From a virus, in IMG/VR virus record IMGVR_UViG_3300040979_000011, positions 1-60,531 of that record: DNA of 60,531 nucleotides; one strand, given 5' to 3'. Below are positions 2,467-47,527 of the stretch, one piece after another. The translations under genes were made by a program, and so were the position numbers. Under the pieces are notes generated by a model. It was given only the letters and a program-made list of their open reading frames with translations. It was not told the DNA's origin and ran no database searches. The stretch's first letter is position 1; the number at the start of each line of letters is the position of its first letter.

Positions 2467-3018
2467 ATGAGTGAAGAAAGAGAGATAGACGAGCTAGTTG
2501 ACTTTATCAAGGCGAGCTCTAAGCCTACTCATAAAGAGCTCAAGCGTCGCACAACTTTAGCTCCAGACGCGCCGGCGCCGCACCTAGAGGCCGTCATAGC
2601 CACTCAGGGCTTGGAGCCTACTACCAAGGCTCTGGAGGCCTGGAACGCGCGTCTAGCTGGGCATCCGATCATCGATATCGCTCATGATATGGGCGTCAGT
2701 ATTGAGCTCGCCAAAAAGCTCGTGAGCGAGGTGCACACCGCGATTTATGAAGACCTCAAAACCAACATGGACCTCAACCGTCAACTGGACCTGGGGCGGA
2801 TCGACTCGATCATTCGAGGACATCTTCCAAGTGCCCAGGCAGGGGATACTGACAGTGCAAATGTCGTCATCCGGGCATTATCACATCGAGCTCGTCTCAC
2901 CGGCTGCGAGCAGCCTAGCGATCCAGCCCGCGATGGTTCACCCCGGAATGTGATGATCTGGCTCACTAACCAGTTACCGTCGATCAATAAAATCGTCGAT
3001 GCTTTACCGCCAGAATGA
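2467..3018 (+). CDS. Terminase small subunit-like HTH protein
   Basis: A 183-residue acidic protein. Residues about 62-85 (RLAGHPIIDIAHDMGVSIEL) form a helix-turn-helix, and a helical region with ARLTGCEQP follows. This layout resembles phage terminase small subunits and related DNA-recognition proteins, which bind the packaging site and deliver DNA to the large subunit. It overlaps the next gene by four bases (ATGA). No large terminase is next to it, which weakens the call; a generic HTH DNA-binding protein is the alternative. Confidence 0.45.
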   Translation: MSEEREIDELVDFIKASSKPTHKELKRRTTLAPDAPAPHLEAVIATQGLEPTTKALEAWNARLAGHPIIDIAHDMGVSIELAKKLVSEVHTAIYEDLKTNMDLNRQLDLGRIDSIIRGHLPSAQAGDTDSANVVIRALSHRARLTGCEQPSDPARDGSPRNVMIWLTNQLPSINKIVDALPPE

Positions 3019-7617: not shown

Positions 7618-7749
7618 CCCTAGGGCTCGAAAGTCGCCGCGAGGGACGGCACTGCGCGTTGGCCCGGTTGACGAACCGGGGGCTTGGTAGCAACTCCGCG
7701 CGCTCCAGGGCCTGCTCGCCGTGGCAGGCCCATCCCTCCGCTTACTTTT
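7618..7749 (+). ncRNA. Structured GC-rich leader upstream of the Tas-like gene
   Basis: The 132 bp before the Tas-like ATG are GC-rich and carry two strong hairpins: CCCGGTT-GAC-GAACCGGG, near 7663-7681, and GGGCCTGC/GCAGGCCC enclosing TCGCCGTG, near 7708-7732. No ribosome binding site is obvious. It could be a regulatory leader or a separate small RNA. The assignment rests only on visible pairing. Confidence 0.35.
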
Positions 7750-8580
7750 ATGAAATCCTCTAAAGAGCTGGTAAAACTCCCTAAAGAGTTGGTGAAAGAG
7801 ACTCAGAGCGTCCTGATCGATAAGCTGATGCAGGACTACGAGCTGAAGAAAGAGCATGTGGCCGAAGCGGTCGAGTTGTACTACGACGCGCAGAAATTGC
7901 GGATAATGCACGCCAATAAACTGCGCAGCGAAGGGCAGAGCGAGTTGACGACTTGGTTCGCGAAGTGGCTGGAGTACGGCGAGAAACTCTTGTACAAAAA
8001 ACTCGAAGGCTGGGTCAACGGCCCGGAAGCGCCCGCGGAGACCAAGTGGGCAATTGAACAGTACGGCATCGGGCCGATCATTGCTGCGGGGCTCGCCGCG
8101 CACATCGACGTGACACGCGCCCGGACGGTCAGCGCGCTCTGGCGGTTTGCCGGTCAGGATCCGACTGCGGATAAGAAGGTCAAAGGCCAGAAGCTGCAGT
8201 ACAACGCGCGGCTGAAAACCCTCTGCAGCTATAAGCTAGCGGAGAGTTTCGTCAAGGTCAGCGCTAAAGAGGGCGCTCGCTATGGGATTTTGTACGCGGA
8301 GTTCAAACGCGAGGAGCTCGAGCGCAACGAAAGCGGCCGCTACGCTCTAGCGGCCAAACGGGAGCTAGCGGCCAAGAACTTTAAGAAACCCGAAATTAAA
8401 AAGCTCTTGGAAAGCGGAAAGTTGCCCGATGGGCATTTGCACTCACGGGCCAAACGTCGAGCGGTAAAGATCTTCTTACAACATTACTGGCTCAAAGCGC
8501 GTGAGGCGCGTGGGCTGGAAATCAACGAGCCCTATGCGATGGCGATCCTAAAGCATTCGGGCCAGATCAAAGCGGCTTGA
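7750..8580 (+). CDS. tasA: TasA-like Nop-domain protein (IS110 C-terminal-like), TIGR-associated
   Basis: A 276-residue protein starting MKSSKELVKLPKELVKE. Residues about 85-165 contain YGIGPIIAAGLAAHIDVTRA, ALWRFAGQDP and LKTLCSYKLAESFVKV, the helix-hairpin-helix region that phage annotations usually label as IS110-type transposase. The DEDD catalytic domain of true IS110 transposases is absent, and there is no HNH or RuvC domain. The protein is all helical, with a conserved HLHSRAKRRAVKIFLQHYWL near the end. It is followed within four bases by a 36-bp-period dual-spacer array. From memory, TIGR-Tas systems pair such a Nop-domain protein with arrays that yield 36-nt dual-spacer guide RNAs, so this is the nuclease-less (TasA) form. 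An in-frame upstream extension to 7684 has no ATG and is rejected. Confidence 0.75.
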   Translation: MKSSKELVKLPKELVKETQSVLIDKLMQDYELKKEHVAEAVELYYDAQKLRIMHANKLRSEGQSELTTWFAKWLEYGEKLLYKKLEGWVNGPEAPAETKWAIEQYGIGPIIAAGLAAHIDVTRARTVSALWRFAGQDPTADKKVKGQKLQYNARLKTLCSYKLAESFVKVSAKEGARYGILYAEFKREELERNESGRYALAAKRELAAKNFKKPEIKKLLESGKLPDGHLHSRAKRRAVKIFLQHYWLKAREARGLEINEPYAMAILKHSGQIKAA

Positions 8581-8583
8581 AGC

Positions 8584-9225
8584 GAGCAACCCCCATAATG
8601 AGCACGAGCGAGCCCAGATAAGCGAGTAACCCATGGAAAACGAGCGAGCCACAGCAGGCGAGTAACCCACGTAGGCTGAGCGAGCCATATGATAAGAGCA
8701 ACCCAGGACATTAGAGCGAGCCACATTAGAAGAGAAACCCATATAGGGAGAGCGAGCCATAATAAAAGAGAAACCCACGAAGCACGAGCGAGCCATCCGG
8801 ATAGATAAATCCAAACATGAAGAGCGAGCCATAGTGCGTGAGAAACCCAGCAACGTTGAGCGAGCCAATGAGCGCGAGCAACCCATTCGCGATGAGCGAG
8901 CCACATCAAGCGAGTAACCCAAGATAACGGAGCGAGCCCTTGACACTGAGCCACCCAATAAATAAGAGCGAGCCAGACTAGCTGAGCAACCCATATCGTT
9001 AGAGCGAGCCAGAACTCATGAGAAACCCATACTTGAAGAGCGAGCCCAATTTCCAGAGTAACCCATGGAAAACGAGCGAGCCACATAACGGAAGTAACCC
9101 ACAAGAACAGAGCGAGCCCTAACGTGGTGAGTAACCCATCGGCAAAGAGCGAGCCACACAACGGGAGTAAACCCATGAGAGTTGAGCGAGCCATAAGACA
9201 TGAGCAATCCAGTAAATAACGAGCG
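8584..9225 (+). repeat. TIGR-like array: alternating 9-bp boxes with 9-nt dual spacers, 36-bp period
   Basis: Seventeen exact copies of GAGCGAGCC alternate with eighteen copies of GAGNAACCC-type boxes. Box starts are 18 bp apart without exception from 8606 to 9110 (8606, 8624, 8642, 8660 and so on), giving a 36-bp repeat. The 9-nt gaps are highly variable, usually begin with A, and number about 33; ATGGAAAAC occurs twice (8633 and 9065). The fourth base of the second box varies (T, C or A). The first box (8584) is 22 bp from the next. The distal end is slightly irregular: 19-bp steps at 9110-9129 and 9165-9184, and a partial box at 9220. The array is on the same strand as the Tas-like gene. 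Each 36-bp unit would carry two 9-nt spacers, the layout described for TIGR arrays. Stop codons in the plus frames and spacer hypervariability argue against coding. Confidence 0.85.
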
Positions 9226-9598
9226 AAAAGAACTCGAAGACCAAGTGCGAGCCGAGCTGCAGGAGCTCGGCCGCGACATCAAAGCGAGCCTGCCAGAGGA
9301 GTTCGGTTTCGCGTTACTAGTGACCGCTGCCGAGCCGGGTGCGGCGCTGCTGTATTGTTCGACGCTTGATCGAGGCGATGTCCTGCAAATGATGCGGGAG
9401 TTCATTGCCACTAACCGGGAGGAACGGGTCTGGCAACGGGAGATGCCGGAGGTAGAGCTAAGTGAAGAGTTTGAGGCTTGGTGGGAAGCACAGCTTAAGC
9501 GCAAAGGGATGGCGGCACCAATGCCCGGTCGACCAGTGGCCGACCAAATCTACGAATGGACCAGGGACGCCTTTACCGCTGGGAGGGCGAGCGCATGA
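9200..9598 (+). CDS. Acidic hypothetical protein starting inside the array
   Basis: A 132-residue acidic protein beginning MSNPVNNERKELEDQVRAE. The first residues are encoded by the last array boxes, so the start is uncertain. The body is helical (EFIATNREERVWQREMPEVE) with a tryptophan-rich stretch EFEAWWEAQLKRK. Coupled by ATGA to the next gene. No family recognised. Its position directly after the array makes it a candidate accessory gene, but nothing in the sequence shows this. Confidence 0.55.
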   Translation: MSNPVNNERKELEDQVRAELQELGRDIKASLPEEFGFALLVTAAEPGAALLYCSTLDRGDVLQMMREFIATNREERVWQREMPEVELSEEFEAWWEAQLKRKGMAAPMPGRPVADQIYEWTRDAFTAGRASA

Positions 9599-21775: not shown

Positions 21776-23017
21776 ATGGGTGATTGCATCGTAACCCCTA
21801 TTCAAGCAACAGACTTTGCCAACAGGGACAATAATAGATTAGTCGGCCAGATCACGACTCTAATTATGCGGCGGGCCCCGTTCAACGACACGTTGGATGG
21901 CGGCGTTTTCGAAAACGCGATCAGTGATCAACAGCGCAACGTGGTCGTTGAGCGACCGATTCTCGGTCAATCGTTGGTACTTCCTGAGTACATTAACGAT
22001 ACCGACAGTTGCGGCACCTTCGGCCAGATCGCTCAGGTCGGAACGACCGAGTACATCACTCGGCTTGGCACCCTGCGCGGGCGCGGTCCAAAAGTTTGTG
22101 TAAAACAAATGCGGTCCGCGTTCCAGAACTCGTACGCGGCAGTTCAAGATTCTCTCCAAAAACAGTTGCTCTACCTTGCCAATTGCGACGTTCGAAGCCA
22201 GCTCTTCCTCCACTCAGGAGTGAAGGTCAAAATCAATCAGGGCAGGACTTTCGAACAAATGGTCAACGGCGACGTGCAGATGATTGACGTTCCGATGAAC
22301 GATTCGACTCCGCCGGATGCCAACCTCACCTTCAGCTTTCTCCAATACCTGCTCGTGTTCGCGCACGAGACACTGCTATGCGAATCCTTCGAATCAGAGA
22401 GGGGTACAGTAGCCAAGTTCATTGGCTCGCAGAATCAGTTGAACGTTTTCCGCGACGAACTGAATGTTCACCAGGATCTGCAGTACCTGACCACGGGTCG
22501 GTACGAGGTCGGCACCGAGAGTTTGACCGGGTACAGTTGGGAAGGTCCCTATCGGGGCATTGCCTTTGGTATCGATCAGCAACCATTGAGGTTCAACGCC
22601 TTCACTGTGTTGAACGGGCAATTGATTCCGCAATTCATCGAACCGGAGATTGCGGTTCCTGTCACTACTGGTTTTGGAGCGAGGACTAATCCGGCTTGGC
22701 TCTATGCCCAGTATGAAGTTGGATTTTTGATCTTCGCCAACTCTTTCCGCCGGTTGGTTCCCGAGCAATATTTGGGAGTCGGTGATTGGAAATTCCCGGC
22801 CCAGTTCGCCCAAGGCGAGCTCGAGTTCACGGTCATCCGGGATAACGATTGCAACACCTACGGCGACTACGGATACCACATCTATCAGATGATCAGAGCC
22901 TATCGGCCTGAGCGTCCGCATTCCGTTATTCCGATCGCTTACAAGCGTTGCAACCCGACCTTTAATTTCCTGACCTGCCCGTCCTATCCTGGCACGGCTT
23001 CAGGCTACTCCATGTAA
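21776..23017 (+). CDS. Major capsid-like protein
   Basis: A 413-residue protein, MGDCIVTPIQATDFANRDN. No membrane or enzymatic motif. Its length, the long helix SAFQNSYAAVQDSLQKQLLY, and a beta-rich second half (FGIDQQPLRFNAFTVLNGQL, VIRDNDCNTYGDYGYHIYQ) fit an HK97-fold major capsid protein of podovirus-like metagenomic phages. It has its own 170-bp upstream region and its own downstream terminator, consistent with high separate expression. The call comes from context and general shape. Confidence 0.6.
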   Translation: MGDCIVTPIQATDFANRDNNRLVGQITTLIMRRAPFNDTLDGGVFENAISDQQRNVVVERPILGQSLVLPEYINDTDSCGTFGQIAQVGTTEYITRLGTLRGRGPKVCVKQMRSAFQNSYAAVQDSLQKQLLYLANCDVRSQLFLHSGVKVKINQGRTFEQMVNGDVQMIDVPMNDSTPPDANLTFSFLQYLLVFAHETLLCESFESERGTVAKFIGSQNQLNVFRDELNVHQDLQYLTTGRYEVGTESLTGYSWEGPYRGIAFGIDQQPLRFNAFTVLNGQLIPQFIEPEIAVPVTTGFGARTNPAWLYAQYEVGFLIFANSFRRLVPEQYLGVGDWKFPAQFAQGELEFTVIRDNDCNTYGDYGYHIYQMIRAYRPERPHSVIPIAYKRCNPTFNFLTCPSYPGTASGYSM

Positions 23018-44531: not shown

Positions 44532-44575
44532 CCGTTTACTTGAAAGATCAAGTAAATAATCCAACTATTTTCCCC
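44532..44575 (-). promoter_or_regulatory. Palindromic operator/promoter, copy C
   Basis: TTTACTTGA (44535-44543) and TCAAGTAAA (44548-44556) are a perfect 9-bp inverted repeat with spacer AAGA, followed by TAATCCAACTATTTTCCCC. This is the most symmetrical of the four copies and defines the consensus. It precedes the leftward membrane gene. Interpreted as a repressor operator. Confidence 0.65.
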
Positions 44576-46267: not shown

Positions 46268-46303
46268 TTTGACATGATTATTCACTTTGACTTATCAAGT
46301 GTG
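46268..46303 (+). promoter_or_regulatory. Palindromic operator/promoter, copy D (ParB-like gene)
   Basis: CACTTTGA/TCAAGTG with spacer CTTA is the same palindrome as copies A-C but in the opposite orientation, preceded by TTGACATGATTATT. TTGACA is a good -35 box. Because the site covers the first ATG of the frame (46274), translation more likely begins at 46325. Confidence 0.55.
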
Positions 46304-46324
46304 GTTTGCATTCGATGTCGGTCA

Positions 46325-47527
46325 ATGAAACTTGAGCCTCATCCAATCGCACTCTGCTATCCGCCCTTGAGCGAGGTGGATTTTTGCGACTTGAAGGAGA
46401 GCATCCAGAAAAACGGCCAACTCAATCCCATTACCTTATATGAAGGCAAGGTGTTGGACGGCACTCAACGTCAGCGTGCTTGTAATGAGCTTGGGATCGA
46501 GTCCAAGACAATCAGTCCCCAAATTGATGATCCAGTTGCTTATGTTGTTAATCAGAACGAACGACGACGTCATTTAACCAAACTCCAAAGAACTGAAGTG
46601 GCTGCACGCCTCGTAGGGCTTAAATGGGGGACTAATCAGTATGCGCAAAAAGTGGAGTCCTCGCGTGAGGACTCCACTTTTCCATTTACAAAAGCAGCTA
46701 AACTGATGGGCGTTAGCGAGCCGCAGGTGTCGCGATTTAGAAAGGTGCTTAAGTCGGGTGTACCGGAGTTGATGCAAGCGGTGAAAGAGAAACGAGTCAA
46801 CCTTGATATCGCGAGCAAAATCGCCAAAGCCTCTCCCGATCAACAGCGGCTAGAGCTGACACGACCTCCCAATGTTCTTAGGGCACAATTCTCACCGCGA
46901 AATAAAAAGGAAGTTAAGGTAATTGATCCCAAGCAAGATGAGCTTTTGGCTGAGATCAACGCGCCCAGCATTTTCCCAAAAGGGTTGCCGCTCCCGGTTC
47001 ATCCGACCAGACCTGACCACACGAAAATCATTCAGGAGGCGATCCTGACTCTGCAAAGAAACGAGCCGGAGATTGCGCGGTTGCAATCGCGGAAACAACT
47101 CAACGAAAAGATCTGGGTCTACACGCAATGTATCCAGACTTATGCGCTCAAGATGGAGGATAGAACGACCGGCCCGATCGATCTGTCCTGGATTCGCTGG
47201 GCTCAATCGGTTGCCGACAAATACCGGCGACGAGAAGAGATGTTTCTTCGGCAGGAACGGAGGGCCGGGACGCTGAGTAAAGAGCGGCAACCAGAACCGC
47301 CAAAGAGACGCTTCGTAGAAAAGGGTTATCAGGGCCGATTCAAACGCTTAAGTATCGAATACAAGCGCTTGCTACGAAAAATGGGTTTCAGTTTGGCTGA
47401 CGAAACTCAGCTCCTAGGCGACATCCAAAAGCTGACCAAAAGTTATTTCGAAGCATTTCGGGGACCGCAGGATCGCAATGGTTCTGTGCCCGCCTCGCAA
47501 CCATCGGAGCTATGTGCTCCGCATTAA
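46325..47527 (+). CDS. ParB/RepB-type protein
   Basis: A 400-residue protein from MKLEPHPIALCYPPLSEVD. The ParB N-terminal fold is clear: KNGQLNPITLYEGKVLDGTQ and RQRACNEL (about residues 29-56), then a helix-turn-helix FTKAAKLMGVSEPQVSRFRK (about 121-140). The C-terminal 230 residues are charged and helical, unlike a canonical ParB dimerisation tail. An in-gene 15-bp palindrome (46648-46681) encodes residues about 108-120. ParB-like phage proteins partition plasmid-prophages or act as regulators; the nearby palindromes suggest a DNA site. The start at 46274 is the alternative. Confidence 0.75.
   Translation: MKLEPHPIALCYPPLSEVDFCDLKESIQKNGQLNPITLYEGKVLDGTQRQRACNELGIESKTISPQIDDPVAYVVNQNERRRHLTKLQRTEVAARLVGLKWGTNQYAQKVESSREDSTFPFTKAAKLMGVSEPQVSRFRKVLKSGVPELMQAVKEKRVNLDIASKIAKASPDQQRLELTRPPNVLRAQFSPRNKKEVKVIDPKQDELLAEINAPSIFPKGLPLPVHPTRPDHTKIIQEAILTLQRNEPEIARLQSRKQLNEKIWVYTQCIQTYALKMEDRTTGPIDLSWIRWAQSVADKYRRREEMFLRQERRAGTLSKERQPEPPKRRFVEKGYQGRFKRLSIEYKRLLRKMGFSLADETQLLGDIQKLTKSYFEAFRGPQDRNGSVPASQPSELCAPH
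46648..46681. repeat. Perfect palindrome, parS-like candidate 1 (inside the ParB-like gene)
   Basis: AAAAGTGGAGTCCTC (46648-46662) and its reverse complement (46667-46681) flank a 4-nt loop, GCGT. It shares the core AGTCCTC-N4-GAGGACT with the palindrome at 48524-48545. ParB proteins bind short palindromic parS sites that often lie in or near parB. Confidence 0.6.

What the first reader, a model, noticed from the sequence alone, without database searches (positions are those of the whole stretch)
7750..9225. TIGR-Tas-like RNA-guided module in a phage: stand-alone Nop-domain protein plus 36-bp dual-spacer array
Directly visible: boxes GAGCGAGCC (17 copies) and GAGNAACCC (18 copies) alternate every 18 bp with 9-nt variable gaps, giving a 36-bp period, and the array starts four bases after a protein carrying the IS110/Nop-like helix-hairpin-helix but no nuclease. 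As I recall, TIGR arrays yield 36-nt tigRNAs with two spacers and pair with Nop-domain Tas proteins. No HNH or RuvC domain is fused here, so this would be a TasA-type, possibly binding-only system in a temperate phage.
Basis: partly seen in the sequence, partly recalled or inferred. Interest (0 to 1): 0.97.

Follow-up and report, generated by a model that had tools for sequence, protein, structure and literature searches.

The report
TIGR-TasA RNA-guided locus in a phage

Summary
The array at 8584-9226 has 17 exact GAGCGAGCC boxes alternating with 18 GAGNAACCC positions (13 exact), giving 17 full units of mostly 36 bp (chance expectation 0.16 half-units, 17 found). The 276-aa protein scores 146 bits against NCBIfam NF052498 (TIGR-Tas; cut-off 100), matches solved TasR (E=6.6e-22) and TasH (E=8.9e-13) by sequence, and its AlphaFold model (pLDDT 88.8) finds TasR/TasH first in the PDB. 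It lacks the N-terminal RuvC/HNH domain, so it is TasA.

Searching IMG/VR with the array DNA alone returned contigs of which 64 carry arrays and 50 of those also encode Tas; box D covaries between edge and loop repeats (AG/AG in 79 contigs, TG/TG in 6). That is independent confirmation of family membership.

Targets remain unknown. 1,162 tigRNA units against 3.1 Mb of related phage DNA gave chance-level matches overall. One lead stands out: a sister system's guide matches a relative's terminase gene exactly, while its own copy differs by three synonymous changes.

Verdict: new member of a known, published family (TIGR-Tas, 2025). It is ordinary in kind; the comparative set makes spacer turnover and targets testable.

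The parts
7750..8580 (+). tasA: 276-aa Nop-domain Tas protein without nuclease domain
   Evidence: NCBIfam NF052498 146.2 bits (cut-off 100); TasR 9mty E=6.6e-22 and TasH 21kl E=8.9e-13; phrog_4285 E=1.9e-37; AlphaFold2 pLDDT 88.8, best PDB folds TasR/TasH
8584..9226 (+). TIGR dual-repeat array, 17 full edge-A-loop-B units on the same strand as tasA
8581..8605 (+). decayed 5' end of the array: loop box 8584-8592 and a 13-nt gap; the 5' truncated edge repeat and first spacer A seen in relatives (TAAGCCA..., TAGCCA...) are missing
   Evidence: one search compares 12 loci of the clade; inference
8606..9192 (+). 17 edge repeats GAGCGAGCC (starts 8606, 8642, 8678, 8714, 8750, 8786, 8822, 8858, 8894, 8930, 8966, 9002, 9038, 9074, 9110, 9147, 9184)
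8624..9210 (+). 17 loop repeats GAGNAACCC or variants (starts 8624, 8660, 8696, 8732, 8768, 8804, 8840, 8876, 8912, 8948, 8984, 9020, 9056, 9092, 9129, 9165, 9202)
8633..8641 (+). spacer B of unit 1, ATGGAAAAC, identical to spacer B of unit 13 (9065-9073)
9083..9091 (+). spacer A of unit 14, ACATAACGG, one mismatch from spacer A of unit 16 (9156-9164, ACACAACGG)
9221..9226 (+). 3' truncated edge repeat GAGCGA (followed by AAAG), as at the ends of other TIGR arrays
9200..9598 (+). downstream ORF (132 aa, no family match) whose first ATG lies inside the last unit; no terminator found between array and ORF

Best explanation
This is a TIGR-TasA system. The array is transcribed with tasA, a host RNase with TasA's help cuts it in the edge repeats into 36-nt tigRNAs, and a TasA dimer carries one tigRNA. 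Spacer A pairs with one strand and spacer B with the other strand of a 16-18 bp DNA site, which is opened and bent but not cut, because there is no nuclease domain. The most likely use is as a guided roadblock that represses transcription or replication of other DNA, such as competing mobile elements. Shown here: protein family, fold, absence of a nuclease, array architecture, co-occurrence with Tas. Inferred from published relatives: processing, dimer, DNA pairing and bending. Guessed: the purpose.
For: Curated family model above cut-off; TasR/TasH matches by sequence, profile E=3.8e-58 and 1.9e-41 and fold. Array architecture as published. An IMG/VR scan with only the array DNA pattern gave 70 contigs: 64 with real arrays, 50 of them with a Tas gene; over all contigs with both, the nearest array is on the same strand in 76 of 76 and within 300 bp in 73 of 76. 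Box D covaries between edge and loop repeats (AG/AG 79 contigs, TG/TG 6), the rule stated in PMC12045711. Eleven Tas proteins at 52-66% identity, next to such arrays and of a size that leaves no room for a nuclease domain, form a clade with this one. Published TasA binds 36-nt RNAs.
Against: No RNA data. No native target: the window's spacer pairs have no match with two or fewer mismatches in the window itself in the predicted geometry, and matches in related phages are at chance level. Five loop boxes are degenerate, the 5' end is decayed and there is no terminator, so part of the array may be unused.
Confidence: 0.83

Rival explanations
1. The repeats are DNA-level iterons (a partition or operator site) bound by a phage protein such as the ParB-like protein, and the Nop protein is incidental.
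For: The phage encodes a ParB-like protein at 46274-47527 and the boxes recur every 18 bp.
Against: Two different boxes strictly alternate with variable spacers; the boxes covary with each other across phages; 50 of 64 array contigs found by DNA pattern alone also encode Tas. The ParB-like gene is 37 kb away.
Confidence: 0.03
2. The locus is a decaying relic: TasA is intact but the array is no longer used.
For: Five of 18 loop boxes are degenerate, the 5' truncated edge and first spacer are lost, no terminator follows, and the downstream ORF may start inside the last unit.
Against: All 17 edge boxes, where processing occurs, are perfect; tasA is intact and its family is conserved at 52-66% identity over about 260 aa.
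Confidence: 0.08
3. TasA with tigRNAs guides something other than DNA blocking, for example RNA modification like box C/D snoRNPs or help to the phage integrase by DNA bending.
For: Nop domain kinship with Nop5 and IS110; PMC12045711 suggests integrase assistance; an integrase-like gene is present.
Against: No fibrillarin- or L7Ae-like gene was seen among the genes scanned; TasR does not act on RNA; 17 different guides are more than one attachment site would need.
Confidence: 0.1

Closest known systems
TIGR-TasA (Faure et al. 2025, PMC12045711; e.g. Flavonifractor plautii FpTIGR)
   Same: Solo Nop-domain protein, dual-repeat array with about 9-nt spacers beside it on the same strand, in a mobile element
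   Different: 17 units rather than the usual 5-15; no terminator after the array; about 38 residues before the region shared with TasR, with a short helix of unknown role in the model; processing not tested
SpTIGR-TasH (Salicola phage CGphi29)
   Same: Near-identical edge repeat (AAGCGAGCC against GAGCGAGCC), effective 8-nt spacers, sequence match E=8.9e-13
   Different: TasH carries an HNH nuclease; here it is absent
TaTIGR-TasR (PDB 9mty)
   Same: Best structural match; Nop and coiled-coil region aligned
   Different: TasR has an N-terminal RuvC domain; box D there is UG, here AG
IS110-family transposases (IS621, ISCro4)
   Same: Weak fold match of the Nop-like RNA-binding part
   Different: No DEDD catalytic domain; array instead of a single bridge RNA; Pfam Transposase_20 below cut-off

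Membership tests
TIGR-Tas (dual-repeat) | Nop-domain protein of the Tas family | tested here: met
   NF052498 146.2 bits vs cut-off 100; TasR/TasH by sequence and fold
TIGR-Tas (dual-repeat) | Two distinct alternating 8-12-nt repeats separated by about 9-nt variable spacers | tested here: met
[quoted passage not shown]
   AG...CC(A) in both repeats here; AG/AG 79 contigs, TG/TG 6
TIGR-Tas (dual-repeat) | Array adjacent to tas | tested here: met
   3 nt after the stop codon; same strand in 76 of 76 contigs with both
TIGR-Tas (dual-repeat) | 5' and 3' truncated edge repeats flank the array | tested here: inconclusive
   3' truncated edge GAGCGA at 9221 present; 5' end decayed
TIGR-Tas (dual-repeat) | Rho-independent terminator after the array (typical, not universal) | tested here: not met
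   No + strand terminator-like site between 9226 and 10653; several relatives also run straight into the next gene
TIGR-Tas (dual-repeat) | Processing into 36-nt tigRNAs | not testable with these tools
   needs small-RNA sequencing
TIGR-Tas (dual-repeat) | Tandem-spacer DNA targeting | tested here: inconclusive
   No target found above chance for this array
TasA subtype | No nuclease domain | tested here: met
   276 aa, all-helical model, no RuvC/HNH in Pfam or in the model; alignment to TasR begins at TasR residue 116
IS110 transposase | DEDD RuvC-like catalytic domain | tested here: not met

The most novel reading that the evidence does not exclude
TIGR arrays of this kind are weapons between sister phages and turn over spacer by spacer: a phage keeps a guide that exactly matches a rival's essential gene and escapes its own guide by silent changes. 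The example is G058/G067 (loci L129/L141), whose guide matches 16 of 16 bases, in the predicted A + reverse-complement B geometry with no gap, of the terminase large-subunit gene of relative G049, while their own terminase carries three synonymous differences in the spacer-B half.
Probability: 0.25. Interest if true: 0.85.

Novelty: new member of a known kind. Interest (0 to 1): 0.4.

Why it matters
TIGR-Tas is a recent RNA-guided family whose natural targets, spacer origin and, for nuclease-less TasA, function are open questions (PMC12045711). This locus belongs to a clade of TasA phages with up to tens of guides each and close relatives, some with and some seemingly without Tas. That allows spacer turnover to be measured and target hypotheses to be tested, which single isolated loci do not.

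Tried and rejected
Self-targeting by the window array: no match with two or fewer mismatches in the predicted geometry. Targets in related phages: 1,162 units against 3.07 Mb gave equal counts for the predicted and three control geometries. Tas-less relatives of the window phage: no excess. The exact match of a sister array (L124, ATCGACCGT/ATTCAAGTA) to window 44528, beside a palindrome, looked striking, but an IMG/VR scan for that site gave two hits, so no excess. Rfam: nothing in the window. Array transcript folding not special (z -1.3); 5' leader of tasA not special (z 0.0). PADLOC has no model for the protein. No close relative in phage or plasmid records. Host not identified. The A + reverse-complement B geometry was derived from the published 3' overhangs, not read from a stated sequence.

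Full report
OBSERVATION. The sequence at 8584-9226 was read directly. GAGCGAGCC is present 17 times without a mismatch; between the copies lie loop boxes GAGNAACCC, 13 exact and 5 degenerate. 31 of 34 box-to-box distances are 18 bp, two are 19 and the first is 22. The 27-base half-unit with up to 3 mismatches is found 17 times in the window (16 of them in the array) against 0.16 expected from shuffles. There are 17 full units followed by a truncated edge GAGCGA at 9221. The base after CC is A at most positions, which corresponds to box C 'CCA', so about 8 bases per spacer are truly free.

PROTEIN. The 276-aa product of 7750-8580 scores 146.2 bits against NCBIfam NF052498 'TIGR-Tas' (cut-off 100), matches TasR (9mty, E=6.6e-22) and TasH (21kl, E=8.9e-13) by sequence, and in a 26-member profile matches them at 3.8e-58 and 1.9e-41, with IS621 at 0.017. 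The AlphaFold2 model (pLDDT 88.8, pTM 0.84) finds TasR and TasH as the ten PDB matches with E below 0.001, then IS110-type recombinases. The match to TasR begins at TasR residue 116; Pfam and the all-helical model show no RuvC or HNH domain. This is a TasA by the published nomenclature. Residues 12-29 form a helix of unknown role before the shared region.

ARRAY AND FAMILY. Tas relatives found by protein have the same kind of array beside them, including the experimentally studied Salicola phage CGphi29 system. I then searched IMG/VR with the array pattern alone. Of the 70 contigs compiled, 64 carry arrays and 50 of those encode Tas; over all contigs with both, the nearest array lies on the same strand in 76 of 76 and within 300 bp in 73 of 76. 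The majority box D is the same in edge and loop repeats (AG/AG in 79 contigs, TG/TG in 6), which is the covariation rule published for this family. Eleven proteins with 52-66% identity form the closest clade. In most of that clade the array follows tasA at once, and the stop codon often overlaps the truncated first edge repeat; in this window that first edge and spacer have decayed. In at least L115 the array precedes tasA and the truncated last edge runs into the start codon. Here the array has no terminator and the first ATG of the next ORF lies in its last unit.

PHAGE CONTEXT. The window is an IMG/VR virus record with tail-fibre, endolysin-like, ParB-like and integrase-like genes, related at about 70% nucleotide identity to G041, G028 and G032, which also carry TIGR-TasA. 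Of the genes around the locus only tasA is widely conserved, so TIGR-TasA looks like accessory cargo. Sixteen further relatives gave no Tas match, though contigs may be incomplete and that search carried no positive control.

TARGETS. [quoted passage not shown] Self matches of the window array with two or fewer mismatches: none. Across 1,162 units and 3.07 Mb, matches in this geometry equal those in three control geometries; 0.47 Mb of Tas-less relatives of the window phage gave no excess. So I cannot say what this array targets. One result departs from the background. Among contigs sharing at least 2 kb of homology, exact 16-base matches occur only in the predicted geometry at gaps 0-1 (two independent events, about 0.2 expected by my estimate; none in 21 control cells). 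One is the L124 guide on window 44528, which got no support from a wider scan. The other is the G058/G067 guide on G049's terminase large-subunit gene; their own terminase differs by three synonymous changes, all in the spacer-B half. For the seven close-relative pairs examined, exact matches at gaps 0-2 are expected about 0.01 times (estimated). It was noticed first and its probability computed afterwards, so it is a lead, not a finding.

ARRAY EVOLUTION. Within arrays, spacers at the same position resemble each other (A-A 37, B-B 31 of 10,083 pairs at no more than 1 mismatch in 8) about six to seven times more often than between phages, whereas A-B cross pairs stay at background; only 6 pairs share both spacers. 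Units 1 and 13, and 14 and 16, show this in the window. Two phages with 2 differences in 14.8 kb outside the array have 7 in it, 6 of them in one 8-nt spacer. At 10-12% flank divergence, arrays differ two to three times more than flanks. In other near-identical pairs the array has no or almost no differences, and assembly error cannot be excluded for a single spacer.

VERDICT. The system is a new member of a published family, so its interest is moderate. The value lies in the comparative set, which makes the open questions on targets and spacer turnover testable.

Noticed in passing
L001/L002 (G002/G003), array around L001:6657-7053: Two phages with 2 differences in 14.8 kb outside the array differ by one replaced 8-nt spacer (unit 4, spacer B) in the array.
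   Followed up: partly
L129/L141 (G058/G067) and L110 (G049): A tigRNA exactly matches a relative's terminase large-subunit gene; its own copy has three synonymous differences in the spacer-B half. A ParB-like gene lies directly before the array, but no Tas was found in G058 or G067.
   Followed up: partly
window 21776-23017: A 413-aa protein of unknown function is 93-96% identical in relatives whose neighbouring genes are mostly 40-80% identical; no match in PHROGs below 0.1 or in phage records.
   Followed up: partly
window 44535-44556 and 551-572: Palindrome TTTACTTGA-AAGA-TCAAGTAAA, with a copy at 3 mismatches; 0.01 expected by chance. Perhaps operators of a phage regulator.
   Followed up: no
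window 2467-3018: Protein matching PHROG 645 'RNase E' (E=4.7e-14), with no Pfam or NCBIfam match. The RNase that matures tigRNAs is unknown, so it may be worth a look.
   Followed up: no
window 7708-7731: Perfect 8-bp hairpin GGGCCTGC-TCGCCGTG-GCAGGCCC just before tasA, with no obvious ribosome-binding site at its ATG.
   Followed up: partly
G060 (locus L133), G051 and other array contigs: 14 array-bearing contigs lack a detectable Tas gene, some of them long (G060 is 86.8 kb with 41 units): fragments, orphan arrays or very divergent Tas.
   Followed up: no
spacers of all arrays: Spacers are purine-rich in both positions (A above T in 54 of 64 arrays, G above C in 53 of 64), unexpected if they were drawn evenly from both strands.
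   Followed up: no
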